From positions 1 through 64,000 of the forward strand of contig SSGH01000001.1 of NCBI GenBank assembly GCA_008015835.1: a stretch of DNA of 64,000 nt, read 5' to 3'. Of this stretch, positions 1 to 12,906 are shown one piece after another. The notes under the pieces are model-generated. The model ran no database searches and was not told the origin of the DNA. It saw nothing but the letters and a program-made list of their open reading frames with translations. The translations under genes and the position numbers were made by a program. The DNA is from Lysobacter sp. (GTDB lineage Bacteria > Pseudomonadota > Gammaproteobacteria > Xanthomonadales > Xanthomonadaceae). Numbering within the stretch: the stretch's first letter is position 1; each line of letters opens with the position of its first letter.

Positions 1-403
1 GTGCGCTCAGATCCACAACCACATCGGTGATACCCGCAAGTGAAAGCTTGCGGAACATCTCTACCACTCGCTTGCCAGCCACGACGGTCTTCTCGTCCTC
101 GGAGAAGATGTTGACCATGTGCACCTGGTTGCGCGGGATAAGCGACTGCAGCGTAGCCTGGTTAGTGTCGGCGCTGCGCAACAGCGCCACATCCGGGCGT
201 GGTCGATGCTCACGAATCAGGTGCGCCTGCAGGCGCGTTCCCGCGGCGGCGGTGAGCAGCCCGGCCGTCTCCGTGGCGCGGGGGTCAAAGCCGGCGCCGC
301 ACACCAACAGCACTTCGCGATCGGCCTGCCCGAAGTACTCCGCAATGAAATGCCGCGCCGCGTCGTCACGGTGGGAGATACACGGGTCCCAGCGCACGCT
401 CAT
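1..403 (-). CDS. Island operon gene 4, Rossmann-like N-terminus (partial)
   Basis: Only the first 134 codons are visible; the gene runs off the left edge of the window. The ATG at 401-403 overlaps the TGA of the upstream ATPase gene (400-402) as ATGA, so it is the fourth coupled gene of the island operon. The visible protein has an alternating strand/helix pattern, with a hydrophobic strand followed by a glycine turn at residues 34-42 (LLVCGAGFDP), then LQAHLIREH and later ITDVVVDLS. This is seen in sequence and suggests a Rossmann-like alpha/beta fold. I do not recognise the family and assign no function. It could be the effector or a metabolite-binding partner of the ATPase/PRTase/HAD set; that is inference from position only. 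Confidence 0.75.
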   Translation of the reverse strand, partial: MSVRWDPCISHRDDAARHFIAEYFGQADREVLLVCGAGFDPRATETAGLLTAAAGTRLQAHLIREHRPRPDVALLRSADTNQATLQSLIPRNQVHMVNIFSEDEKTVVAGKRVVEMFRKLSLAGITDVVVDLSA

Positions 404-2340
404 GCGCGTCCCTCCTCTTCGCGCTGCACATGCTTCAGCACGTCGGCGACCGTGCGCTCGAGGAAACCGCCGCGCTGCAGCGTAAGTCCATTCGCGAGCA
501 GTACCGGGCCAGCCAACTCGATCAGGCACCAGTCCTTATTCTTCGCTCGCTGCTCGGGCACCAGCGAAAACACGTTGTACGCCACACCGAACTGCAACAC
601 ACGCGCCAAGTCGGGTTGGTCCTGCGTGATGCGCGTGAACTCTGCCATTGGGATGCCGTATGCGCTGGCGCCGCCGCCCAGACTCGCGTTGGACTCTAGG
701 GAACGCGTGACGCATTCTCCAGCAATGCCGTTGGCCAGTTGTCGCACCAGATCGGCTTCAGGGAAGTTCCATCCAGCCATCATTACTTGGGCATGGGTAC
801 GCAGCGCGCTAAATTGCTGCTGCGGCGAGAGCCGGGCTTCCGCGGAACGGATGACGCGTGTAAGAAGCAGGTTCACGAGTTGACCAGCGAAATCCAGGAA
901 GCGTTCGGTGTTCTCGTTCGCAAGGTCTGCGAGGTCCTCAAAACCGTACAGATACGGCAGCTCGGCTCGGTGCCATAGATGAACCCGCGCGCCATGTACA
1001 ACGCCCGGGTTCGGTCGCACAACGTGCTCCTCGATCTCAGAGTCGTCAATGTCGTCGAAGATCGAACTTTGCCGCACCTTCTTGCCTTGGCGCGCGACCA
1101 GAATCGCCGTCATCGCACAGCCAACGGTATCTGCTTCGACACCGCGTACGGCGCGTTCTTCCAGGAACTCCGCAACCTGCTGCTTGATATCGTTGACCCG
1201 CGCCACCGGCAGATGCGTGTTCTTGATCACCTGCTCCATCAGCGTCTCGGCCGCAGTCTGCTGCGCCTTGGTGATGCTTTCCAGCCGCTCGTCGAGCATT
1301 TGCCGAATGTCGGTCGCGCCGCGCGTCTGCATCACCGGGATCTGCGCCAGATAGCGCTTGCACAACTGGAGCGCGACCTTGCGGAACTCCGTACGCGATT
1401 TGCTGCGTTCACTCTGCAGGCGGATTTCCTGCACGTCGCGCCCGAGCTGGACGCCCGGCTCGGTCGCCTCGGTCAGGCCCTGCGCCATGGGCTTTCCATA
1501 CAAGATCTGCTCGGGACCAAACGAGTCAAAGCGGGTCAGCATCCACCGCGCGATGCGCACCTCGCGGCCAGCCAGCCAGCGGATCAGGTACTTCTGCTGC
1601 TCCACATGCAGATGCTGCAAGTCATCAAGTACCAGCAGCGGCACGATCTCGCACTGCCGCTCTTCCATAGACGCCGTGAAACGGTCGAGCAGGTCGATCG
1701 GTGCGTACGAATCATTGAGTTCTGGCGGGAATTGCTCGATCGGCGGCGGCAGCAACGCGCCGCACACGCGGATGACCGCTCGTTCCACGGCGATGGCGCG
1801 CTCCATCGCTTCACTAGCCGACGCGCCACCGATGCTGTCTAACTCGCCGGGCGTGCCGCGACGGCCAACGAGCTGCACGTCCTGCAACGCGATCTTCGCG
1901 TCGATGAAGCCCTGCAGCCAGCTGAGCATCGCCCGGGCGTTGATGAGCGCTCGTAGAAGGCGGTTTCGGATCGCCGGCTCGTACGGACATTCCCAGCAGT
2001 CGCGGTACGCCTCTTCCATCGACAGGCGACAGCCGGCGATACGCGGGAATTTGCTCTCGTATGCCTTGCAGTTGGCCAACGCATCGCGCAAGTCGCCCAA
2101 CTGCGGGGAGGTCTCGGCCATCTCCTGGAGCGTCCGCAGGGTCGGCAACCTGAACAGGTGTGCCATCGTCGTCTTGCCGCTGCCGGGCGTGCCACTCACG
2201 ATCACCAGACGATCGAACAGAGCATCACTCTCGGCATGCGGGCGTAGATATATCTCGAAAGGCGCTGGCGCCACGTAGGGCAGCAGCGCCTCGTCGTAGC
2301 GGACCTTCTCGATTGCGCGTTTGTCGAATGGACTGGCCAT
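400..2340 (-). CDS. AAA+ ATPase, ORC/CDC6-like, island operon gene 3
   Basis: A 646-aa P-loop ATPase. Walker A GTPGSGKTT is at residues 50-58, very near the N-terminus, and a Walker B strand ending LLVLDD is at about 235-240, followed by a QHLH stretch. The rest is helical, with no membrane segment or nuclease motif that I see. The start is ATG 2338-2340, preceded by AGGAG at a good distance; an upstream in-frame extension to 2520 lies inside the previous gene and is not used. The order after a PRTase-like gene resembles, from memory, the family named ORC-CDC6 AAA ATPase in domain databases. Such proteins usually remodel or sense nucleic acid or partner proteins. Seven bases separate it from the PRTase gene, and it overlaps the next gene by ATGA. 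The ATPase call is firm; the subfamily is less so. Confidence 0.85.
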   Translation of the reverse strand: MASPFDKRAIEKVRYDEALLPYVAPAPFEIYLRPHAESDALFDRLVIVSGTPGSGKTTMAHLFRLPTLRTLQEMAETSPQLGDLRDALANCKAYESKFPRIAGCRLSMEEAYRDCWECPYEPAIRNRLLRALINARAMLSWLQGFIDAKIALQDVQLVGRRGTPGELDSIGGASASEAMERAIAVERAVIRVCGALLPPPIEQFPPELNDSYAPIDLLDRFTASMEERQCEIVPLLVLDDLQHLHVEQQKYLIRWLAGREVRIARWMLTRFDSFGPEQILYGKPMAQGLTEATEPGVQLGRDVQEIRLQSERSKSRTEFRKVALQLCKRYLAQIPVMQTRGATDIRQMLDERLESITKAQQTAAETLMEQVIKNTHLPVARVNDIKQQVAEFLEERAVRGVEADTVGCAMTAILVARQGKKVRQSSIFDDIDDSEIEEHVVRPNPGVVHGARVHLWHRAELPYLYGFEDLADLANENTERFLDFAGQLVNLLLTRVIRSAEARLSPQQQFSALRTHAQVMMAGWNFPEADLVRQLANGIAGECVTRSLESNASLGGGASAYGIPMAEFTRITQDQPDLARVLQFGVAYNVFSLVPEQRAKNKDWCLIELAGPVLLANGLTLQRGGFLERTVADVLKHVQREEEGRA

Positions 2341-2347
2341 CGTGCTC

Positions 2348-3457
2348 CTAGGAGTGCCGTTGCCGGCGGCGGAAGAGAGGTCGCATGTGTTTGGGGCCCT
2401 TGAACTTGGAGTCTTCAGTTTCCGCCCAAAGCAAGGCGACACTGTTGTTGGGCGTATTGTGGTCCAGCACAAGCGGCAGTGCGCACTGCGCGTAACCCAA
2501 ACCCAGGTGTTGCGACCCACCCTTCAGAGTATGGCTAGTCTCGATGCCAGCGTCGTAGTAGGTGTTCGTTAGAGCGATGAAGTCTGCATCCTTCGTTGGG
2601 TCCAGCGGCAGGTCCGCCGGGTACAGCAGGCCGAAGGACGGATCGACTACATTTCTGACCTTTTCCCACGCCTCCGGATTGTCTTGACGGAACGCAGCCA
2701 TTTCCTTCACGAGATGTGCACATGCTTTTGGCGTGCCGATGAGATGATGGACAAGCAACTCGAATTTCGGCTCCGCCAGAGTCTCGCGATGGATAGCGGC
2801 GAGGAACTTGGGCAGCTTGCCTTTCCATTTGCCGGACTCCAGACGCAGTAGCGAAGTGCCCGATGCAGTGAAGTCGTCCACCAGCACGATGCGGCGGAAC
2901 AACGCCGCTGAATCGTGCAGGTAGTTGCGCAACTTTTCGAGCAAATCCGCGCACTTGTCTGCGGAGGGCTCGACAGTAACCACCACCTGCTCATTGGAAA
3001 TGCGCCCAGCATTTGCGTGTCGAAACGCATCCAAGCGAGCGCCGTCGCTCAGTGCCAAGAACAAGGTAGCGCGGCGGTCCTTCTCAATGTGCTGCCGCGC
3101 CGCCTCATTGGTAAGGACCTCCCAGGATTTCGCGCCGGTGGCTTGCATGGCCGACTGAACCAGGACCGGCCAGACCACACGCGGATACAGCAACTCCACA
3201 AGCCGCTGCCGCTCGGCCGGGCTCACGAACACCAGCCGCTCGCGCACGAAGGCGTATGCCGACGCGCGCTCCGCCGGGTCAAACTGTTGCAGCCACGCCA
3301 CCAAGCTCTCCAGAAAGCGCATGCCCGCAAGGAACTCGCGGTAGTCGTCGTATTTCAGACGGGCCATGAGGTCCATCCACCGGAACTCGCGGGTCGCCTC
3401 TTCATCGGTCCAATTCATGACGGCGGCCAACAGTCGCAGGGCGGTATCGGTCTTCAT
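2348..3457 (-). CDS. Phosphoribosyltransferase-like protein (PRTase-CE type), island operon gene 2
   Basis: A 369-aa protein. Residues 1-150 are mainly helical. The PRPP-binding loop IVLVDDFTASGTS at about 190-202 has the paired acidic residues and the small-residue phosphate loop of type I phosphoribosyltransferases. Residues 230-340 hold further alpha/beta elements (FELLVHHLIGT, GLLYP, and a C-terminal LPLVLDHNTPNNS stretch). The loop looks catalytically intact, so it could bind PRPP or a ribose-phosphate ligand; the actual substrate is unknown. From memory, domain databases have a family (PRTase-CE) found with ORC-CDC6 ATPases and HAD phosphatases, which fits this operon. ATG 3455-3457 overlaps the stop of the SIS-HAD gene as ATGA, so the two are translationally coupled. 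Confidence 0.8.
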   Translation of the reverse strand: MKTDTALRLLAAVMNWTDEEATREFRWMDLMARLKYDDYREFLAGMRFLESLVAWLQQFDPAERASAYAFVRERLVFVSPAERQRLVELLYPRVVWPVLVQSAMQATGAKSWEVLTNEAARQHIEKDRRATLFLALSDGARLDAFRHANAGRISNEQVVVTVEPSADKCADLLEKLRNYLHDSAALFRRIVLVDDFTASGTSLLRLESGKWKGKLPKFLAAIHRETLAEPKFELLVHHLIGTPKACAHLVKEMAAFRQDNPEAWEKVRNVVDPSFGLLYPADLPLDPTKDADFIALTNTYYDAGIETSHTLKGGSQHLGLGYAQCALPLVLDHNTPNNSVALLWAETEDSKFKGPKHMRPLFRRRQRHS

Positions 3458-5367
3458 GCGAGACGAGACTCTTCGGTCAATCGGATCGTGCCTTCACCGT
3501 CGGGTTGCAACCTCTGCAGCCAATGGGCGGTGGCACGCATGCCTTTGACCCGCGGTGGCGCCAGATTCCAGCCGGCTAACGGGTCACTTGAGCACTCATC
3601 CACCGACAAGCATAGGGGCGCAGCGAGCAGTTCCCAGTCGTTGCCCGGCCACGCGCCACGGTCGCCAATACGTAGCACGGCCCCCGACGCGCAGCCGGCG
3701 AGCTCGGCCGCGCGCTCGACGACGTGGAGCTTCGAGCACACCGGAGAGAGCACGTCGACTGAGTGCGAACTTAGCCACACTCGGATGCCATCCATGCCGT
3801 GGCGGTCCAGACATTCTCGGGTAGCGCGCCATGCGTGGGTGAGCGACTGGCCGGCGACCGGGGTGACCGTGAGCTGGTGTTCGCGGTAGCGCAGCGCACC
3901 TAGGCCAATGGCATCAAGTTCACGCATCAACACGTCGCACGCGGCACGCAGCTGCGGATGCGACGGTGCACCGTCGAGTTCCGGTGCGACTTCATCGAGT
4001 CGCAAGACCTTGGCGCCGTTGTGGTAACCGATGATAACGCGCGGCCAATGGCGCGGGTCAGGGAGCGCCGTTCGCAGTTCACGCTGGATCGAGTCACCCC
4101 GTCCCGTGGCCACCCCGACGATAACGCCGAGGTCTAGCAAACGACGTAGTTCGCTTACGATGCGTTCGTCTAACGGTTGGTAGCGCTTGGGACTGTCGAC
4201 CAGCGTACCGTCGTAGTCCATGACCACCGCATGCACCGGCGTGCGATGCAACGTGACTCGGGCCGTATTCAGAGCAGCGCGCCAACTATCGCTGTTGGCC
4301 GCCGCGGCGGACGGTACCTTGCGCAACAGCGCGTAGCGGTCCGTATCGACCGGCGCGGGTTCGGGGTAGGGAAAGCCGCCTTCGTAGAGTTGTTCGCCAA
4401 AGCGCGGCACGCCGGGCCGGCCTGGATCACAACCCGTGCCGGCCGCCCACTGCGCAGTTGCATGGATCGACCATGCGAGACTGGCAAGCCCGGCAGCAAT
4501 GCCGTCCTCCGGCGTCTGCACAGGCAACGTCTGCACCGTTGACGGCAGCAGCGCTAGCGTCGGCGTCGCAAGCACCTTTGCGCTTGGAGGAATCAGTGCG
4601 ACAAGCACGGTGCGGTCTCCGCGTTCGGCGATCCAGTAGTGCCGACCGTGACCGAAGTTGCGGAAGTCAGATATCCACAAGTTCGCCAAAGCCGTTTCGG
4701 TCAGACGTGCTTCCAGGTCCTGGGCGCCCAAGCTCGTCCACGCATCGTGAAGCACCACCAGTTCGAGATCATCGCGACACAGGTGCGCGACTGCAGTCGC
4801 CGCATCCACGCCCCAGGCCATCAAGCGAGCGCAGTGGGCATCGTCCAGAGGCGCCTTGCTCGGCAGCCAGCGAACATAAGCCTTGGCGAGTGCGCACGCC
4901 ATCGCCCAGACGCTGTTGGTCGCCAAAAAACCATCGCACCCAGGCGGCAGGTGGAGTGTGACGATCTCGCTCCGCAGCTCGGCCTCAAGGTACGCCTGCA
5001 GGGGCGAGGCCGATTGACCGATCACGCCGACGACGCAGCGGTCGCCGCGCCGTGCAGCCACCTGTGCGGCCTGCATGATGTCTGGATGGCGGCCACCGGC
5101 AGACACCAGCCAGGTGGTAGCGCGCACCGGCACGGGCAACACAGCGTACTCGAGCGGCGTCATCGCAACTGCGGCGCAACCGAAGGCCATTCGCTGCATG
5201 CGGCAGGCCCACTCGGCCACGACCTTGGCGCCGCCAGAGGCGACCACCACCAGTCCGGTCTCACTCGATGCCGCAGCTAAGGCAGCGAGTTGGCCGGGCG
5301 CGGCGGCGGGAACCTCGGCCTGGGTCGCCGTCAGCTCGGTCAACTCGTCACGGTACGAACGTCCCAT
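3454..5367 (-). CDS. SIS-HAD fusion protein, island operon gene 1
   Basis: A 637-aa two-domain protein. Residues about 35-165 look like a SIS sugar-isomerase fold: VVVASGGAKV, a VSAGGRHPDI phosphosugar loop at 88-97, and LPPGCDGFLATNS at 140-152. Residues about 380-600 are a HAD phosphatase with motif I DYDGT at 384-388, motif II threonine in VATGRG (421), motif III lysine in SKLH (546) and motif IV GDRGAWPGND at 568-577; all four are present, so activity is plausible. ATG 5365-5367 is preferred over the longer frame to 5427 because AGGAG lies seven bases upstream. It is the first gene of a four-gene coupled operon. SIS plus HAD next to a PRTase suggests handling of a phosphorylated sugar or nucleotide (inference). 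No signal peptide or membrane segment. Confidence 0.85.
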   Translation of the reverse strand: MGRSYRDELTELTATQAEVPAAAPGQLAALAAASSETGLVVVASGGAKVVAEWACRMQRMAFGCAAVAMTPLEYAVLPVPVRATTWLVSAGGRHPDIMQAAQVAARRGDRCVVGVIGQSASPLQAYLEAELRSEIVTLHLPPGCDGFLATNSVWAMACALAKAYVRWLPSKAPLDDAHCARLMAWGVDAATAVAHLCRDDLELVVLHDAWTSLGAQDLEARLTETALANLWISDFRNFGHGRHYWIAERGDRTVLVALIPPSAKVLATPTLALLPSTVQTLPVQTPEDGIAAGLASLAWSIHATAQWAAGTGCDPGRPGVPRFGEQLYEGGFPYPEPAPVDTDRYALLRKVPSAAAANSDSWRAALNTARVTLHRTPVHAVVMDYDGTLVDSPKRYQPLDERIVSELRRLLDLGVIVGVATGRGDSIQRELRTALPDPRHWPRVIIGYHNGAKVLRLDEVAPELDGAPSHPQLRAACDVLMRELDAIGLGALRYREHQLTVTPVAGQSLTHAWRATRECLDRHGMDGIRVWLSSHSVDVLSPVCSKLHVVERAAELAGCASGAVLRIGDRGAWPGNDWELLAAPLCLSVDECSSDPLAGWNLAPPRVKGMRATAHWLQRLQPDGEGTIRLTEESRLA

Positions 5368-5525
5368 CCTTCCACTCCTGATGCCCACCCGGTCCCTGTG
5401 GGAAAGTCGACAGCTCTCCATGCCCATTTGCCGCAGCCCAGAGGTCGGAATGCCTCCGCTGGCAACACCACCCCTGACCTCCGATCAAAGCGTAGTTGCT
5501 TGTGCATGCCCCTAAGGCAATGGAT

Positions 5526-5544
5526 TAGGTAAAGAGTATACCTA
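5526..5544 (-). promoter_or_regulatory. Putative promoter/operator of the island operon
   Basis: On the minus strand a TATACT hexamer (5540 down to 5535) is a good -10 candidate about 165 bases upstream of the SIS-HAD start. It is embedded in an inverted repeat TAGGTA (5526-5531) / TACCTA (5539-5544), which could be an operator. I see no convincing -35 at 17 bases, so this stays tentative. Confidence 0.35.
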
Positions 5545-5910
5545 GGGCCTCTAAACCAAGCCTCTGGTCCATCAGGTCAGCGGAAAATTGGTCCATGAGA
5601 CGAACATCAGCCGGTTCGATCTGAGCTGATAAGAACACGATAGAGTCGATTCGCCCCCAAATACTCGTCCCGCGCTAAGGCATCCACCGGCTTCTCCAGC
5701 ACTCCGCCCGGTCGCTCGCTCGCTGCATCAACGTCTCACAATCAACCGAGACGCCGTTCCGTTCCCAAGGACCTCCACGATCACTGCCTGTGGATGAGTC
5801 AAAGCAATCGATGCGTCCTCGCCAGGCGGGCTCACCTCCTGAAGTCGCGCGAGAAGGGGGCGTGTCTGTACTGGGTAGCTAACGGGCGGCAGGCGCCTGG
5901 ATCCAGCCGC
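5545..5910. other. Gene-free stretch in island
   Basis: Between the island operon promoter and the zinc-ribbon pseudogene I see no open frame with coding character and no clear repeat. The plus-strand frame covering part of it has no recognisable protein features. Confidence 0.5.
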
Positions 5911-6386
5911 CTACACGGCGTCGTCGGCCACGAGGCCTCGACCGCCCAGGCGGAACATGGGTACGAGGGCTGTTTGGACACCAAGCAGGAAGACTCGGTC
6001 CGGGGGCGAGGTAGTCACAGTGAACGACCTGGAACGGCCTGCGTCTCGCCGACGTGGGTCGGCCAACCTTCCAGCAGCGCCCGCAGCACAGCGGTCCCGA
6101 TCAGTTGCCGCCCGAACAGGATCCGCTTGCGTGTGCCAGGACGGGCCAGATCGCCCAGGTACCAGAGACGGCCGGGCACGATCGTTCGCGGCGGTTCACC
6201 GTTTAGTCCCAGCGCCTGGGCCATGCGACGGTGCAGCCAATCGAGGTCCGCGGTGTGCCGTTGTTGGTCTTCGGCCGCCAGTGCGACTTGGCCGCATGCG
6301 CGACACTGCCCGGCGCCGATCTGGACTACGCGCACGCTGTTCGCCTCGCACTACGGGCAATCGCATATTGAGGCCGCGTTGGATCT
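5911..6386 (-). pseudogene. Broken zinc-ribbon protein remnant
   Basis: Reading the minus strand, a C-P-stop-C half-ribbon near 6346-6359 is followed by CRAC about 13 residues later, then a helical stretch (DWLHRRMAQALG) and RLWYLGD. This looks like a zinc-ribbon DNA-associated protein. A TAG at 6351-6353 sits between the first two cysteines, and the frame stops again near 6015. Homologous-looking sequence (VTTSPPDRVFLLG ... GRGLVADDAV) continues in another frame to a stop at 5911-5913. So there is at least one nonsense mutation and one frameshift. I do not know the family name. It lies between the island operon and the tRNA, as expected for decayed cargo or an element-encoded gene. Confidence 0.6.
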
Positions 6387-6425
6387 TCAGTCGGGTAGGC
6401 ATTGAGGCCAGAAAACTGCTCTCCC

Positions 6426-6576
6426 GAGTCCAAGCGTAAATCGTTGATTTGCAGGGGAATCGAAAAATGATCGCTTGGACTCGGCTTTCATGAAGTCCAA
6501 GGCGACAGAGAAGGAGAGAGAGAATTTGGCGAAAATTTCGCCAAAACGCGCGATGTGACGCGCGTGCAAAGTCCAA
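6426..6576. repeat. AGTCCAA repeat cluster beside the tRNA 3' end
   Basis: The heptamer AGTCCAA occurs at 6427-6433, inverted at 6475-6481, and direct at 6494-6500 and 6570-6576. The first two copies extend to perfect 11-bp inverted arms (6426-6436 and 6472-6482), and the second and third form 8-bp arms (6474-6481 and 6494-6501). Clustered short repeats beside a tRNA 3' end resemble integrase arm-type binding sites. No integrase gene is in the window. Confidence 0.5.
6525..6545. promoter_or_regulatory. 21-bp perfect palindrome, operator-like
   Basis: TTTGGCGAAA and TTTCGCCAAA flank a single central A. Such a perfect short palindrome with an A/T core is typical of a dimeric regulator or recombination-accessory protein site. 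It lies between the AGTCCAA repeats and tRNA-Ile2. Confidence 0.5.
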
Positions 6577-6648
6577 AGGAAACATGCGAAAACCCTGCAA
6601 AATACGGGGGGGTTGCGATACCGCCGAGAGCGGTTTGTTTCAGTGCGA

Positions 6649-6724
6649 TGGTGGGCCCACCAGGACTCGAACCTGGAACCAAGGGATTATGAGTCCCGTG
6701 CTCTAACCATTGAGCTATAGGCCC
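6649..6724 (-). tRNA. tRNA-Ile2 (CAU anticodon, lysidine type)
   Basis: A 76-nt cloverleaf with encoded CCA. The acceptor stem GGGCCTA pairs with TGGGCCC (one G-U), followed by D arm GCTC/GAGC, anticodon loop CTCATAA, T arm CCAGG-TTCGAGT-CCTGG and discriminator A. The anticodon reads CAU. The 8-base D loop AATGGTTA and the variable loop TTGGTT fit the minor isoleucine tRNA, modified by TilS to read AUA, better than elongator tRNA-Met (inference). Its 3' end faces the accessory island. Confidence 0.9.
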
Positions 6725-6740
6725 TTGCGGCGATTCTACG

Positions 6741-6768
6741 AAAAAACCCGCCGGGTAGGCGGGCTTTT
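6741..6768 (-). terminator. Rho-independent terminator of rpoD
   Basis: The stem CCCGCC (6747-6752) / GGCGGG (6758-6763) is followed on the minus strand by six T residues (6746-6741). It lies between the rpoD stop and the tRNA. Confidence 0.85.
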
Positions 6769-6802
6769 CGCGTTCTCGGGATGGGCCGTCGCCGGCCGTA
6801 CC

Positions 6803-8650
<1,848 letters not shown>

Positions 8651-9013
8651 AAGGCGCCACCGTGGGAAAGTGAACCCGTAATGATAACAGCCGGAGGGGT
8701 CGGGCTGGGGCCGGAACGGGAAAACGGCCCGATCGGATCGCCGATACGGGCGAAATGCGGAGGCCCGGATCGGAATTCGGTCGTTCGGCGAAGCGCGGCG
8801 TAAGCGGCGTCGGCGAAGCGAAAGAGGCGGGACGGGGAGCGATGTGGTGCGCGGGGATCGGCTTTCAAGCCCGCGGCGCGCGGGGCGGGGCCATGCGGAG
8901 AACGCGATTCAGGCGTTCGGGCGGTTGGACGGCGCGCCCTGACGAAGGTTCCGCCAGGCTCCGCACACCCGAATTCCGCGAGCTTCGGTTCGGCTGGGCG
9001 CGGATCCGCACGC
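8651..9013. other. Gene-free stretch upstream of rpoD
   Basis: About 360 very G+C-rich bases between the rpoD start and the dtd stop. It must hold the rpoD promoter, but I see no clear hexamers. Short frames here lack coding character. Confidence 0.5.
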
Positions 9014-9454
9014 TCAGGTCTTGAGCAGGAACGTCACCGGCCCATCGTTCACCAGCGACACCTGCATGTCGGCGCCGAAGCGGCCGGTTTCGACGGCGAA
9101 TGCGTGCTTTTGTCGGCAATACGCCACGAATTCGCCGAAAATACGCTCCGCGTCCTGCGGCGGCGCGGCGGTGCTGAAGCTCGGGCGCAGGCCGGAGGCG
9201 GTGTCGGCCGCCAGCGTGAATTGGCTGACCAACAGCAGCCCGCCGCCCACGTCGGTGAGCGAGCGATTCATCCGTCCGGCGTCGTCGCCGAACACCCGGT
9301 AGCGGAGCAAGCGGTCGCCCAGTTTGGCGATTTCGGCCGGCCCGTCGCCGGGCTGGACGCCGATCAGCGCCAGCAGGCCAGGGCCGATCGCACCGACGAC
9401 CTCGCCGGCGACCGCGACCTGGGCATGGGTGACGCGTTGGATCAGGGCGAGCAT
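9014..9454 (-). CDS. dtd: D-aminoacyl-tRNA deacylase
   Basis: A 146-aa cytosolic enzyme that removes D-amino acids mischarged on tRNA. The N-terminus [13 protein letters not shown], the SQFTLAADT catalytic loop (about residues 78-86) and the C-terminal [11 protein letters not shown] motif, with its cross-subunit Gly-Pro-type proofreading element, are typical. Length matches the family (about 145 aa). It is on the minus strand, divergent from the acyltransferase gene. Confidence 0.96.
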
Positions 9455-9535
9455 CGGCGGGCCTGCGAAAGGGACGGGGAAGGCGAATCGAGGGTGAACG
9501 GATCGCGAGCGCGCATCCTACCGATCAACGGCCTT

Positions 9536-9563
9536 CGCGGGACGCGGGACGCGGGACGCGGGA
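9536..9563. repeat. Four tandem CGCGGGA heptamers
   Basis: Four exact copies of a 7-mer are followed by a degenerate CGGGGA-type tail to about 9580, in the divergent dtd/acyltransferase intergenic region. This is a minisatellite-like slippage tract; no function is evident. Confidence 0.7.
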
Positions 9564-9649
9564 CGGGGACGGGGCGGGGCCAGGACGGCTCCATATCGGG
9601 CCCGACGCGCGATCCGCGCGCGCCGAGCAACGCGTAGACTGCCCGCCCC

Positions 9650-10558
9650 ATGACCGACGCCATCGCCCGCCTTCTGTTCGGCATCGCCCGCTGGTTCGGC
9701 CGGCTGCCGTGGTCGTGGACGCGCCGGTTGGGCGACGCCGTGGCCTGGCTGTGGCGGCGACAAAGCCGCCGCGAGAGCAAAGTCGCCTGGCGCAATCTCG
9801 AACTGGCGTATCCGGACATCGGCGTCGCCGAACGCGAAGCGATGCACGCCGACATCTTGCGCACCACCGCGCGCCAAGCCTTCGAGACGCTGCGGCTGTG
9901 GACTCGGCCGCACGCGGAGAACCTGCGGACGATGATCGTGCGCCGGGAGGGCGTCGAGTTGTTCGATGCCGCGATCGCGTCGGGCAAGGGCGTGATCGTC
10001 GCCGCGCCGCATTACGGCAACTGGGAATTGCTGAATCAATGGCTGGCCAGCTACACGCCGCTGGCGATCCTGTACCGGCCGCCGGAGTCGCGCGTGGGCG
10101 AAGCGTTTTTGCGCCTGGCGCGCGCCGACGCCGAGGGCCGTGTGACCCAGATTCGCGCCGAAGCCGCCGGCATCCGCCAATTGTTCAAACGCCTGCGCGA
10201 CGGCGGCGTGGTCGGCATCCTGCCGGACCAGCAGCCGAAGGCCGGCGATGGCGAGTTCGCGCCGTTTTTCGGCCGCCCGGCCTACACCATGACGCTGTTG
10301 TCGCGGCTGGCCGAACGCAGCGGCGCCACCGTGCTGTTCGTGTACTGCGAACGCGTCGGCCCCTTGGCGTTCGCGCTGCGCGTGGAAGCCGCGCCGACGG
10401 CGATCGCCGACCCGGACGTCCTCGTCGCCACCACGGCCCTGAACGCGGCGGTGGAGCGCATCGCGCGCCGCGACCCGGCGCAGTATCAATGGACCTACAA
10501 GCGCTACACGCTCGACCCGTCCTGGAACCCGTACTTCAATCCCTATCGCGATTTGTAG
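9650..10558 (+). CDS. Lysophospholipid/lipid A acyltransferase, LpxL/HtrB family
   Basis: A 302-aa inner-membrane acyltransferase. The catalytic HX4E/D motif is seen as APHYGNWELL (about residues 115-124). The region up to GILPDQQPKAGDG (about 195-207) and the C-terminal YQWTYKRY segment match LpxL/LpxM-type enzymes, which transfer an acyl chain from acyl-ACP to lipid A or a related lipid. The N-terminal GIARWFGRLPW segment is membrane-associated. It lies upstream of a PH-domain pair and an LPS glycosyltransferase cluster, in keeping with envelope lipid work. The choice between lauroyl and myristoyl transferase cannot be made from the sequence alone. Confidence 0.9.
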   Translation: MTDAIARLLFGIARWFGRLPWSWTRRLGDAVAWLWRRQSRRESKVAWRNLELAYPDIGVAEREAMHADILRTTARQAFETLRLWTRPHAENLRTMIVRREGVELFDAAIASGKGVIVAAPHYGNWELLNQWLASYTPLAILYRPPESRVGEAFLRLARADAEGRVTQIRAEAAGIRQLFKRLRDGGVVGILPDQQPKAGDGEFAPFFGRPAYTMTLLSRLAERSGATVLFVYCERVGPLAFALRVEAAPTAIADPDVLVATTALNAAVERIARRDPAQYQWTYKRYTLDPSWNPYFNPYRDL

Positions 10559-10619
10559 AGGCCGCGACGCGCGTCGACCGACGCCTCGGCGTCGCCTGTA
10601 GGCGGCCCCGCCCGCAGCC

Positions 10620-11408
10620 GTGCATACTCCGCGAGACATCCGCCGACGCCTCTTCGCTGTGACCCCAACGACCGACCCCGCTTCTTCCGACGGACCCGGA
10701 AATTCCGAAGCGTCCGACCGCGCCGGCGCCCCGCACGATCCCTCGAACGCTTCGCGCGCGAGCCAAGCGGTCAACATCGATGCGCCGAAGATCGATAGCC
10801 CGACTAGCGATCGCCGCGCCAGCGATGATGCGAACATCGACGACGACGCATCCCGTATCGGCGATGCGTTCGCCGACATCGCGCCGCGGATCGCCGACAT
10901 GGTGGTCGAAGAGGAGCCGCTGCAGCCGGACTGGCAAGCGCTGCCGGCGCGCGCGCATACGGTGTTCCGCTACGTGGGCCTGCTGGGCACGCTGCCGCCG
11001 GCCGCGATCGGAGCGATGGTGCTGTACGGCCGCTTCGGCGCGCACGCTACGACGTGGGTCGCGATCGGCGGCATCTTCGCCACCGCGATCGCGTTCGGTT
11101 TGTGGTTGGCGTACCGGCGGTATCGCTACACGTTCTGGAAACTCGACCACGACGGCTTCGCGGTGAAGCGCGGGCGTCTGTGGCAATGGGAAACGCGGGT
11201 GCCGACCACGCGCGTGCAGCATTTGGATCTCAAGCGCGGGCCGCTGGAGCGCGCGCACGGGCTGGCCTCGGTGATCCTGCACACCGCCGGCACGCGGCTG
11301 AGCGCGGTCAGCGTCTCGGGCATGGACCTGCACGACGCGGAGCGCTTGCGCGATTACCTCACGCGCCAGATCGATCGACAGGACGGCGATGACTCCGACC
11401 ACGCCTGA
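10620..11408 (+). CDS. Membrane PH-domain protein (bPH2, YdbS-like)
   Basis: A 262-aa protein with a polar low-complexity N-terminal region (about residues 1-95), two hydrophobic segments (about 115-135 and 142-160), and a bacterial PH domain type 2 with the WKLDHDGFAVKRGRLWQWET and VPTTRVQHLDLKRGP signatures. It overlaps the following YdbT-like gene by 20 bases, a pairing common for these families. In Bacillus the YdbS/YdbT pair has been linked to tolerance of antimicrobial peptides; no role is proven here. The start is uncertain: GTG 10620 has no clear ribosome site, and GTG 10659 is an alternative. Confidence 0.85.
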   Translation: MHTPRDIRRRLFAVTPTTDPASSDGPGNSEASDRAGAPHDPSNASRASQAVNIDAPKIDSPTSDRRASDDANIDDDASRIGDAFADIAPRIADMVVEEEPLQPDWQALPARAHTVFRYVGLLGTLPPAAIGAMVLYGRFGAHATTWVAIGGIFATAIAFGLWLAYRRYRYTFWKLDHDGFAVKRGRLWQWETRVPTTRVQHLDLKRGPLERAHGLASVILHTAGTRLSAVSVSGMDLHDAERLRDYLTRQIDRQDGDDSDHA

Positions 11409-12906
11409 CGCGTCGACGCTGGAGGCGACGGACGAACGGCGGCTGCATCCGCTGTCGTGGTTCTTCGTGCTGATCCAGCAGCTCAAGCAATTCATCGTGC
11501 CGCTGCTGGTGCTGTTGTTCCTCGGCCGCGGCGACCGCAACGACCTGTGGTCGGTGGTCGCGATCTGTTTGCTCGCGGCGTACTCGATCTGGCAGTACTA
11601 CACCTACAGCTTCCGCATCGACCGCGACAGCTTGATGATCCGCAGCGGTCTGTTCGAGCGCAAACAGCGGCAGATCCCGTTCGCGCGCATCCACAACGTC
11701 GCGCTGCATCAATCGCTGCTGCATCGCATCTTCCGCGTCGCCGAAGTGCGGCTGGAATCGGCCGGCGGCATCAAGCCGGAAGCGGAGATGCGCGTGCTCA
11801 CGCTGGACGACGCGCTGGCGCTGGAAGCCCTGGTGCGCCGCCGCCGCTCGGAAACGCCCGGCGCCGCTGCCGCAACGCACAGCGATGCGGAGACGGAATC
11901 GGGCGAAGTCTTGGTCAGCCTGTCCAACGCCGAAGTCATTCGTCTCGGGCTGATCTCCAATCGCGGCATGCTGGTGGTCGCGGGCGTGTTCGCGGTGCTG
12001 GCGCAGTTGAACCCGGACCTGCTCACCCGCGTGCTGCGCGGCTGGCTGCAGACGCTGTTCGGCTACGTATTGAGCTATGGCCACGGCCACGAAGTCGCGG
12101 CGATCGTCACGCTCGTCGTGATCTTCATCGTCGTGCTGCGTTTGTTTTCGGTGACGCTCGCGCTGCTGCACTACACCGATTTCCAGTTGGAGCTGCACGG
12201 CCGGCGGCTGACCCTGGTGCGCGGCATGTTGGCGCGCCTGCGCACCAGCACGCCGCATCGACGCATCCAGACCTGGACGCTGCACGAAGGCGTACTGCAT
12301 CGCCTATTCAAGCGACGCACGCTGGAAGTCAGCACGGCGGTGCTGGACAACGGCTCGCATGGGCAACCGCGTTCGCTGCGCGAACTCGCGCCGATCGGGA
12401 CGCCCGCATTGTGCGACGCGCTGATCCATCGACTGCTGCCGCAGGTGAAGTGGCCGGTGCGCGATTGGCGCCATCTGCATCGCTTCGCGGGCTGGCGCCT
12501 GTTCGTCCCGCATTTGTTTTGGACGCTGGTGCTGGCGTTCGGCGCGTATTGGAATCTCGGGATTCTCGGCGCGGGTTTCTTCGCGTGCTGGTTGCCCTGG
12601 GGCGGTTATCTGGCGTGGCGGCATGCGCGGATGGCCGGGTATGCGATGGACGACCGCATCGTCGCCGTGCGCGACGGGTGGTGGACGCGACGCTGGCGCT
12701 TCGCGGAAATCGGCAAAGTGCAGGCCGTGCTGCTCAAGCAATCGCCGGTCGACCGCCGGCTCGGCATGGCCACGCTGCTGTTGGACACCGCCGGCGGCTC
12801 GGGGCTCGGCGCGCCGCTGGTGTTGCACTATCTGCCCGAGAAAGAAGCGCGCGCGCTGCAGGCGACCTTGGTGCATCGCATTTCGCGGCAGCGGTTGCGC
12901 TGGTGA
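11389..12906 (+). CDS. Membrane PH-domain protein (bPH2 repeats, YdbT-like)
   Basis: A 505-aa multi-pass protein with repeated bPH2 units. Each has two membrane helices followed by a DRDSLMIRSGLFERKQRQIP- or DFQLELHGRRLTLVRGML-type PH core (about residues 75-125 and 260-325). A third copy near the C-terminus (DDRIVAVRDGWWTRRWRFAE) makes three. The partner YdbS-like gene overlaps by 20 bases, so the two proteins are probably made together and act together in the inner membrane. The biochemical function of this family is unknown. Confidence 0.88.
   Translation: MTPTTPDASTLEATDERRLHPLSWFFVLIQQLKQFIVPLLVLLFLGRGDRNDLWSVVAICLLAAYSIWQYYTYSFRIDRDSLMIRSGLFERKQRQIPFARIHNVALHQSLLHRIFRVAEVRLESAGGIKPEAEMRVLTLDDALALEALVRRRRSETPGAAAATHSDAETESGEVLVSLSNAEVIRLGLISNRGMLVVAGVFAVLAQLNPDLLTRVLRGWLQTLFGYVLSYGHGHEVAAIVTLVVIFIVVLRLFSVTLALLHYTDFQLELHGRRLTLVRGMLARLRTSTPHRRIQTWTLHEGVLHRLFKRRTLEVSTAVLDNGSHGQPRSLRELAPIGTPALCDALIHRLLPQVKWPVRDWRHLHRFAGWRLFVPHLFWTLVLAFGAYWNLGILGAGFFACWLPWGGYLAWRHARMAGYAMDDRIVAVRDGWWTRRWRFAEIGKVQAVLLKQSPVDRRLGMATLLLDTAGGSGLGAPLVLHYLPEKEARALQATLVHRISRQRLRW

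What the first reader, a model, noticed from the sequence alone, without database searches (positions are those of the whole stretch)
400..5367. Coupled SIS-HAD / PRTase / ORC-CDC6-type ATPase operon in a tRNA-linked island
Seen: three intact genes with ATGA or few-base junctions. Catalytic motifs look complete in all three: HAD motifs I-IV and a SIS loop in one fusion, a PRPP loop in the second, Walker A/B in the third. Established: each domain family handles phosphorylated sugars, PRPP-type ligands or nucleoprotein. I recall predicted conflict systems combining PRTase, HAD and ORC/CDC6 ATPases, but no experimental work. Inference: the set makes or breaks a nucleotide- or sugar-phosphate signal or base modification under ATPase control, for anti-phage or stress defence. 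The SIS-HAD fusion as the lead gene is the most unusual part.
Basis: partly seen in the sequence, partly recalled or inferred. Interest (0 to 1): 0.85.

Follow-up and report, generated by a model that had tools for sequence, protein, structure and literature searches.

The report
Mobile two-module sugar-phosphate immunity-like operon
A small mobile gene set pairs sugar-phosphate enzymes with a likely ligand sensor, a switch-like ATPase and a phosphoribosyltransferase of a kind proposed as an anti-phage effector; its two halves are swapped between bacteria as units, which points to an untested defence system run by a small sugar-type molecule.

Summary
The three genes are real, intact and at the stated coordinates. 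Relatives show the whole cassette: of 32 loci examined that no contig end cuts, 29 carry SIS-HAD, PRTase, ORC/CDC6-like ATPase and CARF6 intact, all 29 with a PfkB kinase, a YbiA-type NADAR gene, or both. In 72,556 plasmids, separate searches with four of the proteins hit nearly the same 17 records. Trees split the cassette into two exchangeable modules: PRTase-ATPase-CARF (0 supported conflicts) and SIS-HAD-PfkB (1), against 20-31 between them. Two plasmids carry two divergent triads with one sugar module. I read it as an accessory conflict (probably anti-phage) system in which a sugar/ribosyl-phosphate metabolite is the shared currency and the triad is sensor, switch and effector. No activity or defence was tested. 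PRTase-CE and ORC-CDC6-like are Pfam families and CARF6 is in PADLOC, so this is a new variant of a known kind. The window copy cannot be shown to be complete.

The parts
3454..5367 (-). SIS-HAD fusion, 637 aa: N-terminal double-SIS phosphosugar isomerase/deaminase-like part, C-terminal HAD-IIB phosphatase
   Evidence: HAD PF08282; profile of 23 relatives matches 8eol/3hba, E 1.8e-6; motif positions
2348..3457 (-). PRTase-CE family phosphoribosyltransferase, 369 aa, PRPP-type loop VDDFTASGTS at residue 193, conserved C-terminal HNTPNNS at 333
   Evidence: PF24390 E 1.3e-16; PADLOC PRTase_III-A E 2.8e-10; conservation; positions
400..2340 (-). ORC-CDC6-like AAA ATPase, 646 aa, Walker A GTPGSGKTT at residue 50, Walker B LLVLDD from residue 235
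   Evidence: PF24389 E 1e-10; conservation in 21 sequences; coordinates
2..403 (-). CARF6-type sensor gene, first 134 residues only; cut by the end of contig C57
   Evidence: PADLOC CARF6 E 4.6e-25; 78% identical to the first 134 residues of the 357-aa homologue in L002; window base 1 is contig base 1
6649..6724 (-). tRNA-Met whose 3' end faces the operon; integration site in some same-genus genomes
   Evidence: integrase directly 3' of this tRNA in 2 of 6 same-genus stretches

Best explanation
The locus is the 5' part of a mobile accessory conflict cassette made of two exchangeable modules. The triad (PRTase, ORC/CDC6-like ATPase, CARF6) works as one complex: CARF6 reads a small ligand, the ATPase couples ligand state to a nucleoprotein or invader cue, and the PRTase is the output that attacks a cell or phage target using PRPP. 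The sugar module (SIS-HAD with a PfkB kinase and/or a YbiA-type NADAR) sets the level of the ligand, a ribosyl- or sugar-phosphate compound, so that the triad stays off or fires. Shown by sequence: the genes, their linkage, the two evolutionary modules, conserved catalytic-type residues, presence on plasmids. Inferred: complex formation, ligand identity, direction (making or removing the ligand), PRTase as effector, and defence itself.
For: 29 of 32 uncut loci hold all four core genes intact; in these 29 the triad order PRTase-ATPase-CARF never changes and PfkB and/or NADAR is present every time. Separate plasmid searches converge: window SIS-HAD 18 records, L025 PRTase 18 (17 shared), L025 CARF 17 (all shared), L035 ATPase 15 (all shared) of 72,556. 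Modules: conflicting supported splits 0 within the triad, 1 within SIS-HAD/PfkB, 20-31 between (22 loci). Two plasmids carry two divergent triads (PRTase 33.8 and 41.5%, the latter over a piece cut by the locus edge; ATPase 26.7% in both; CARF 29.5 and 30.7%) with one sugar module, which fits a shared small molecule. None of the cassette genes is recognised as a cyclase, so the CARF ligand would need another source. PRTases are probable effectors in retrons, and a DprA-PRTase pair protects against T7 and lambda (passages, PMC9122126; retrons also PMC12548924); this PRTase matches the retron III-A profiles, its kinship to the DprA-linked one was not tested. Patchy spread and plasmids.
Against: No experiment. 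Cross-module distances still correlate (r 0.35-0.77, Mantel p 0.0002-0.0046), so the modules are only partly independent. The CARF fold rests on PADLOC profiles and a moderate model (pLDDT 74.4) whose top full-length Foldseek hits are not CARF proteins; CARF structures appear as partial matches (Sso2081, Csa3). The PRTase model is poor and finds no PRTase fold. NADAR-only and PfkB-only loci weaken any single fixed pathway. The ligand link between the modules is untested. The rest of the CARF gene, PfkB and NADAR were not found in this genome's assembly. One lone PRTase (L045), one distant lone SIS-HAD (L047) and one cassette with broken genes (L046) exist. The 29 loci include near-duplicates (L026, L027, L038 of L025).
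Confidence: 0.4

Rival explanations
1. Toxin-antidote chemistry: the PRTase attaches phosphoribosyl groups to a base, nucleotide or nucleic acid when triggered, and the sugar module clears the product in healthy cells (NADAR cuts the N-glycosidic bond, SIS isomerises or deaminates the phosphosugar, HAD dephosphorylates it).
For: The NADAR is closest to E. coli YbiA (2b3w E 7.7e-19), a ribosyl N-glycosidase; NADARs are antitoxins in DarT1-NADAR and YarT-YbiA (passages, PMC11543638, PMC11125620). By family chemistry a PRTase makes, and a NADAR breaks, ribosyl N-glycosides.
Against: NADAR is absent from the fetched stretch of 11 of the 29 intact loci, and its divergence hardly follows that of the PRTase (r 0.17, Mantel p 0.08, 14 loci), unlike an antidote paired to a toxin.
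Confidence: 0.25
2. Ter-like signal synthesis: PRTase and SIS-HAD together make one nucleoside-like signal that CARF senses and the ATPase acts on.
For: The Ter system is described as PRTases and HAD enzymes making a nucleoside/nucleotide signal, with separate sensor proteins (passages, PMC7824862; PMC5512222).
Against: The PRTase tree agrees with ATPase and CARF (0 conflicts) but not with SIS-HAD (24) or PfkB (31), which is unexpected if PRTase and SIS-HAD were consecutive enzymes.
Confidence: 0.2
3. A catabolic or nutritional trait (for example use of an amino-sugar or glycated amine through a PfkB kinase and a SIS deglycase), with the other genes as regulators.
For: PfkB plus SIS recalls FrlD/FrlB (recalled); the PfkB proteins match fructokinase, ribose-1-phosphate kinase and, weaker, fructoselysine 6-kinase models, all below cut-off; a distant SIS-HAD homologue sits beside a sugar ABC transporter and aldose epimerase (L047).
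Against: No transporter gene lies between cassette genes in the maps made (ABC transporter genes on the other strand do flank L016 and L032); PfkB is missing from 7 of 29; CARF and ORC-CDC6-like ATPase are constant.
Confidence: 0.1

Closest known systems
Ter stress/defence systems (PRTase + HAD module, TerB/TerD sensors)
   Same: PRTase and HAD enzymes coupled to separate ligand sensors in a mobile conflict setting
   Different: No Ter gene was identified among the cassette genes; CARF6, ORC-CDC6-like ATPase, double-SIS and PfkB instead; here the PRTase is inherited with the sensor, not with the HAD
Retron type III-A PRTase effector and the DprA-PRTase anti-phage system
   Same: PRTase matching the retron III-A profiles (E down to 1.1e-17 in relatives) as a likely effector; kinship to the DprA-linked PRTase not tested
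   Different: No reverse transcriptase or DprA among the cassette genes; a CARF/ATPase pair takes the sensor place
DarT1-NADAR and YarT-YbiA toxin-antitoxin pairs
   Same: NADAR-family N-glycosidase
   Different: No ADP-ribosyltransferase among the cassette genes; NADAR is optional and hardly co-varies with the core
Type III CRISPR / CBASS signalling with CARF sensors
   Same: CARF-family sensor
   Different: No Cas10 or CD-NTase-type cyclase recognised among the cassette genes; no effector domain recognised on the CARF protein; a metabolic module is present
NagB-II / FrlB-type double-SIS enzymes and HAD-IIB sugar phosphatases
   Same: Similarity and conserved positions of the SIS-HAD protein
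   Different: The two are fused and embedded in a conflict-type cassette
PADLOC candidate PDC-M42 and anti-phage NADAR DS-32
   Same: NADAR component (PDC-M42C E 1.9e-07 and 8.4e-09; NF053876 55.8-63.9 bits)
   Different: DS-32 model cut-off is 240 bits, not reached; no other PDC-M42 component matched

Membership tests
PRTase-CE (Pfam PF24390) | score above the curated cut-off | tested here: met
   61.7 bits against 27
ORC-CDC6-like (Pfam PF24389) | score above the curated cut-off, Walker A/B | tested here: met
   41.4 bits against 27; P-loop positions and a Walker B Asp invariant in 21 sequences
HAD (PF08282) | score above the cut-off and the HAD motifs | tested here: met
   25.7 bits against 20.9; motif positions invariant or nearly so in 23 sequences
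Double-SIS phosphosugar isomerase/deaminase | similarity to known double-SIS enzymes with the catalytic positions | tested here: met
   8eol/3hba E 1.8e-6 with a profile of 23; against: Pfam SIS in only 1 of 23 members at E <= 0.01
CARF6 family | match to CARF6 profiles over the whole protein | tested here: met
   L002 homologue E 5.9e-94 over residues 7-356; window fragment E 4.6e-25; fold support only moderate
CARF-type cyclic oligonucleotide signalling (type III CRISPR, CBASS) | a cyclase gene in the locus | tested here: not met
   cassette genes are all assigned to other families and none is recognised as a cyclase; flanks not systematically searched
CARF-type cyclic oligonucleotide signalling (type III CRISPR, CBASS) | CARF binds a cyclic oligonucleotide | not testable with these tools
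   needs binding assays
Retron type III-A | reverse transcriptase next to the PRTase | tested here: not met
   not among the cassette genes; flanks not searched with RT profiles
Retron type III-A | retron ncRNA | not tested
   no RNA-family search was run
DarT-NADAR toxin-antitoxin | ADP-ribosyltransferase partner | tested here: not met
   none among the cassette genes; flanks not systematically searched
Ter system | TerB/TerC/TerD proteins | tested here: inconclusive
   no Ter family among the cassette proteins scanned; neighbourhoods not scanned for Ter
Anti-phage defence system | protection against phage | not testable with these tools
   needs phage challenge

The most novel reading that the evidence does not exclude
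A kind of bacterial immune signalling in which a CARF sensor reads a sugar- or ribosyl-phosphate metabolite set by a plug-in SIS-HAD/PfkB/NADAR module, instead of a cyclic oligonucleotide, and fires a PRPP-dependent PRTase through an ORC/CDC6-like ATPase. Different sensor-effector triads share the same currency and are swapped onto it by recombination.
Probability: 0.25. Interest if true: 0.85.

Novelty: new variant of a known kind. Interest (0 to 1): 0.62.

Why it matters
How PRTase effectors act, and what CARF proteins without a cyclase sense, are to my knowledge open questions. The cassette ties both to a defined enzyme set small enough to clone whole, and its two-module inheritance gives a direct test: if a triad from one plasmid works with the sugar module of another, a shared small molecule is the likely link.

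Tried and rejected
Rejected: (1) three-gene system: relatives show a constant fourth gene and one or two further genes. (2) Single linear pathway: made unlikely by the tree conflicts. (3) DarT-like toxin-antitoxin membership: no ADP-ribosyltransferase among the cassette genes, NADAR closest to YbiA. (4) DS-32 membership: below cut-off. (5) Mainly phage-borne system: no match in 50,697 phage records for SIS-HAD or PRTase; four contigs of the viral collection do carry it.

Led nowhere: PRTase structure model (pLDDT 64.6, no PDB match at E <= 0.001); ATPase scan of viral contigs (600 stretches matched the pattern, none a relative); a second copy of the last 14-18 bases of the tRNA in the window (none); remnants of NADAR (14 queries), PfkB (5) or integrase (2) in the window (none at E <= 0.1); the rest of the operon elsewhere in the genome; paper searches for PRTase-CE (0 papers), CARF6/PDC-M42 (no occurrence in the listed papers) and combinations.

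Rows dropped: the Mantel test left out the window and L003 (truncated) and L026, L027, L038 (near-duplicates of L025). The tree comparison used the 22 of 29 intact loci that have PfkB, first triad only. Of 18 plasmids with a SIS-HAD match, 16 were fetched (14, two); H4 and H7 were not. L014 (weak PRTase hit, E 3.7e-4) was not examined. My ORF caller starts genes at the first possible start, so some lengths are too long, and it hid PfkB/PRTase in L028 and PRTase/NADAR in L033, which the annotation and one search show.
Full report
Observation. A fourth ORF starts by ATGA overlap at 403 and runs off the window; the window's first base is also the first base of contig C57. Its 134 residues match PADLOC CARF6 profiles (E 4.6e-25). 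The missing part was not found in the other contigs, nor were PfkB or NADAR relatives or the matching DNA of L002, so this copy cannot be shown to be complete.

Domains. Pfam: HAD Hydrolase_3, PRTase-CE, ORC-CDC6-like, each above its cut-off. The SIS part is too diverged for Pfam in the window protein, but a profile of 23 relatives matches glucosamine-6-phosphate deaminase 8eol and phosphosugar isomerase 3hba over positions 19-248, with a conserved E and the HG aligned. Catalytic-type positions are conserved across the relatives: SIS SGG, E and H, HAD DxDGT, K, GD and (90% or more) GND, PRTase DD..SG, the P-loop and Walker B Asp, PfkB D..GxGD, NADAR E40 and E118. These look like working enzymes; activity was not tested.

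The whole cassette. A locus in a Lysobacterales MAG (L002; SIS-HAD 72% identical) carries SIS-HAD, PRTase, ATPase, CARF6, a PfkB kinase, and further on a NADAR gene. I collected loci by SIS-HAD and, independently, by PRTase. I examined 37 loci, the window included: 5 are cut by a contig end (window, L003, L042, L080, L081); of the other 32, 29 hold all four core genes intact, 1 has all four but several broken (L046), and 2 hold one gene alone (L045 PRTase, L047 distant SIS-HAD). The 29 include near-duplicates (L026, L027, L038 of L025). In all 29 the order PRTase-ATPase-CARF is the same; 11 have PfkB only, 7 NADAR only, 11 both, 0 neither, within the stretch fetched. Of genome loci found by PRTase alone, 9 of 9 with enough sequence have SIS-HAD (L018-L021, L079, L080, L082-L084); L081 is cut by the contig end and weak hit L014 was not examined.

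Plasmid test. In 72,556 plasmids, tblastn with the window SIS-HAD found 18 records, with the L025 PRTase 18, of which 17 are shared, with the L025 CARF 17, all shared, with the L035 ATPase 15, all shared. The one SIS-HAD record without the other genes (L047) holds a distant homologue beside a sugar ABC transporter, a ROK regulator and an aldose epimerase, which hints at the enzyme's metabolic origin. The one PRTase record without SIS-HAD is L045. Plasmid hosts are mostly alphaproteobacteria, with Paraburkholderia and an actinobacterial Paenarthrobacter; MOB-suite types 9 of the 18 SIS-HAD plasmids as conjugative. An Acidobacteria MAG has SIS-HAD at a contig end (L003).

Accessory spread. SIS-HAD: 5 of 148 relatives, own genome included, and 2 of the 11 same-genus genomes, own included; 1 of 369 in the class sample, the own genome. 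PRTase: 6 of 398 in the phylum, own included and one of them weak, 2 of 385 and 6 of 295, each including the centre genome.

Two modules. Pairwise identities correlate within PRTase/ATPase/CARF (r 0.93-0.96; 0.85-0.92 among pairs under 60%) and within SIS-HAD/PfkB (0.88; 0.85), and less across (0.35-0.77; 0.08-0.47), although the cross-module correlations are still significant (Mantel p 0.0002-0.0046), so the modules are not fully independent. NADAR is weakly correlated with SIS-HAD and the triad (0.13-0.20, p 0.04-0.11, 14 loci) and moderately with PfkB (0.64, p 0.02, 9 loci). Median identities: NADAR 62%, PRTase 36%, PfkB 32%, SIS-HAD 29%, ATPase 28%, CARF 28%. Trees on 22 loci: conflicting pairs of splits with support of 0.9 or more are 0 for PRTase-ATPase, PRTase-CARF and ATPase-CARF, 1 for SIS-HAD-PfkB, and 20-31 for every pair of one triad protein and SIS-HAD or PfkB. 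As a check, the SIS and HAD halves agree with each other (1 conflict) and with PfkB (2 each). So the cassette behaves as two units that recombine. Trees were FastTree only; deep branches are long. Plasmids L036 and L035/L048 each hold two divergent triads with one sugar module; in L048 a patatin-like gene lies before the second triad.

Mechanism. PRTases are called probable effectors in retrons, mode of action unknown, and a DprA-PRTase pair protects against T7 and lambda (passages of PMC9122126; retron III-A PRTase also in PMC12548924). CARF proteins are discussed as ligand sensors of defence systems (passages of PMC4012209); none of the cassette genes here is recognised as a cyclase. NADAR is closest to E. 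coli YbiA (2b3w, E 7.7e-19), a ribosyl N-glycosidase of riboflavin intermediates (passages of PMC11543638). PfkB, SIS and HAD act on sugars and sugar phosphates in their families (established family knowledge). The simplest picture is a triad of sensor, switch and effector controlled by a small sugar- or ribosyl-phosphate ligand set by the sugar module. Shown: genes, linkage, modules. Inferred: ligand, direction, complex, effector, defence. The strongest support for a shared small molecule is that related triads occur with different sugar modules and the reverse (trees).

Structure. The CARF6 model (pLDDT 74.4) gives mixed Foldseek hits. Its first ranks are chloride transporter regulatory domains with poor superposition (rmsd 18-20); CARF proteins appear as partial matches (ring nuclease Sso2081, 159 columns, TM 0.48 by target; Csa3 0.42). 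This is moderate support. The PRTase model is too poor to use.

Island. The operon lies 1.28 kb from the 3' end of tRNA-Met, downstream of rpoD. In 2 of 6 same-genus stretches a tyrosine integrase sits about 150 bases 3' of the same tRNA (L065, L069); in L067 no tRNA was called, and the other three were not scanned for integrases with profiles. No integrase relative or second copy of the tRNA end was found in the window. G+C is 63.3% for bases 1-5367 against 67.1% for 6801-64000 (5-kb windows 63.3-70.0%). A tRNA-linked island is plausible but its other end is not assembled.

Defence neighbours. Of 10 proteins chosen by hand because they looked promising (9 flanking, 1 cassette PRTase), matches include a type I restriction system (L041), GajA/GajB (L046), E1-like and phospholipase effectors (L028, L048), a caspase (L037) and candidate PDC-M23B (L021). 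This choice is biased and is no enrichment test; other flanks are ordinary (an AcrB-type efflux gene in L015, relaxase and transfer genes in L020).

Prior knowledge. In the held library (searches; listings only, except the papers cited by passage) I found no paper that describes the cassette. The CARF classification paper, the NADAR prediction paper, a 2020 immune-systems paper and the Ter paper are not held, so an earlier description is not excluded. Pfam already names PRTase-CE and ORC-CDC6-like, and PADLOC names CARF6. I therefore call it a new variant of a known kind, close in logic to Ter (passages of PMC7824862, and PMC5512222).

Noticed in passing
L046 (NZ_CP104991.1), 4729-12596: A cassette whose PRTase, CARF and SIS-HAD genes are each in pieces while ATPase, PfkB and NADAR are open; GajA/GajB (Gabija) relatives lie next to it.
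   Followed up: partly
L045 (NZ_CP121643.1), 9001-10062: A lone PRTase of the same family without the other cassette genes within about 9 kb.
   Followed up: partly
L047 (CP140871.1), 8113-9807: Distant SIS-HAD homologue in a sugar ABC transporter / aldose epimerase neighbourhood, a possible metabolic ancestor of the fusion.
   Followed up: no
L065 298-1530 and L069 6439-7686: Tyrosine integrases about 150 bases 3' of the rpoD-linked tRNA-Met in two same-genus genomes; in L065 a C-5 cytosine methylase follows.
   Followed up: partly
L015, 6445-6686: A stretch of about 240 bases, 73% like the sequence just 3' of the window's tRNA-Met, lies next to a cassette of another clade although no tRNA was called there.
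   Followed up: no
L002 17063-17407 (-), L033 11198-11587, L036 11223-11570; annotated also in L034 and L035: Small HTH regulator next to the NADAR gene in several cassettes.
   Followed up: partly
window PRTase C-terminus (residues 333-368) and relatives: Strongly conserved HNTPNNS...LW and R..RH motifs outside the PRPP loop, of unknown role.
   Followed up: no
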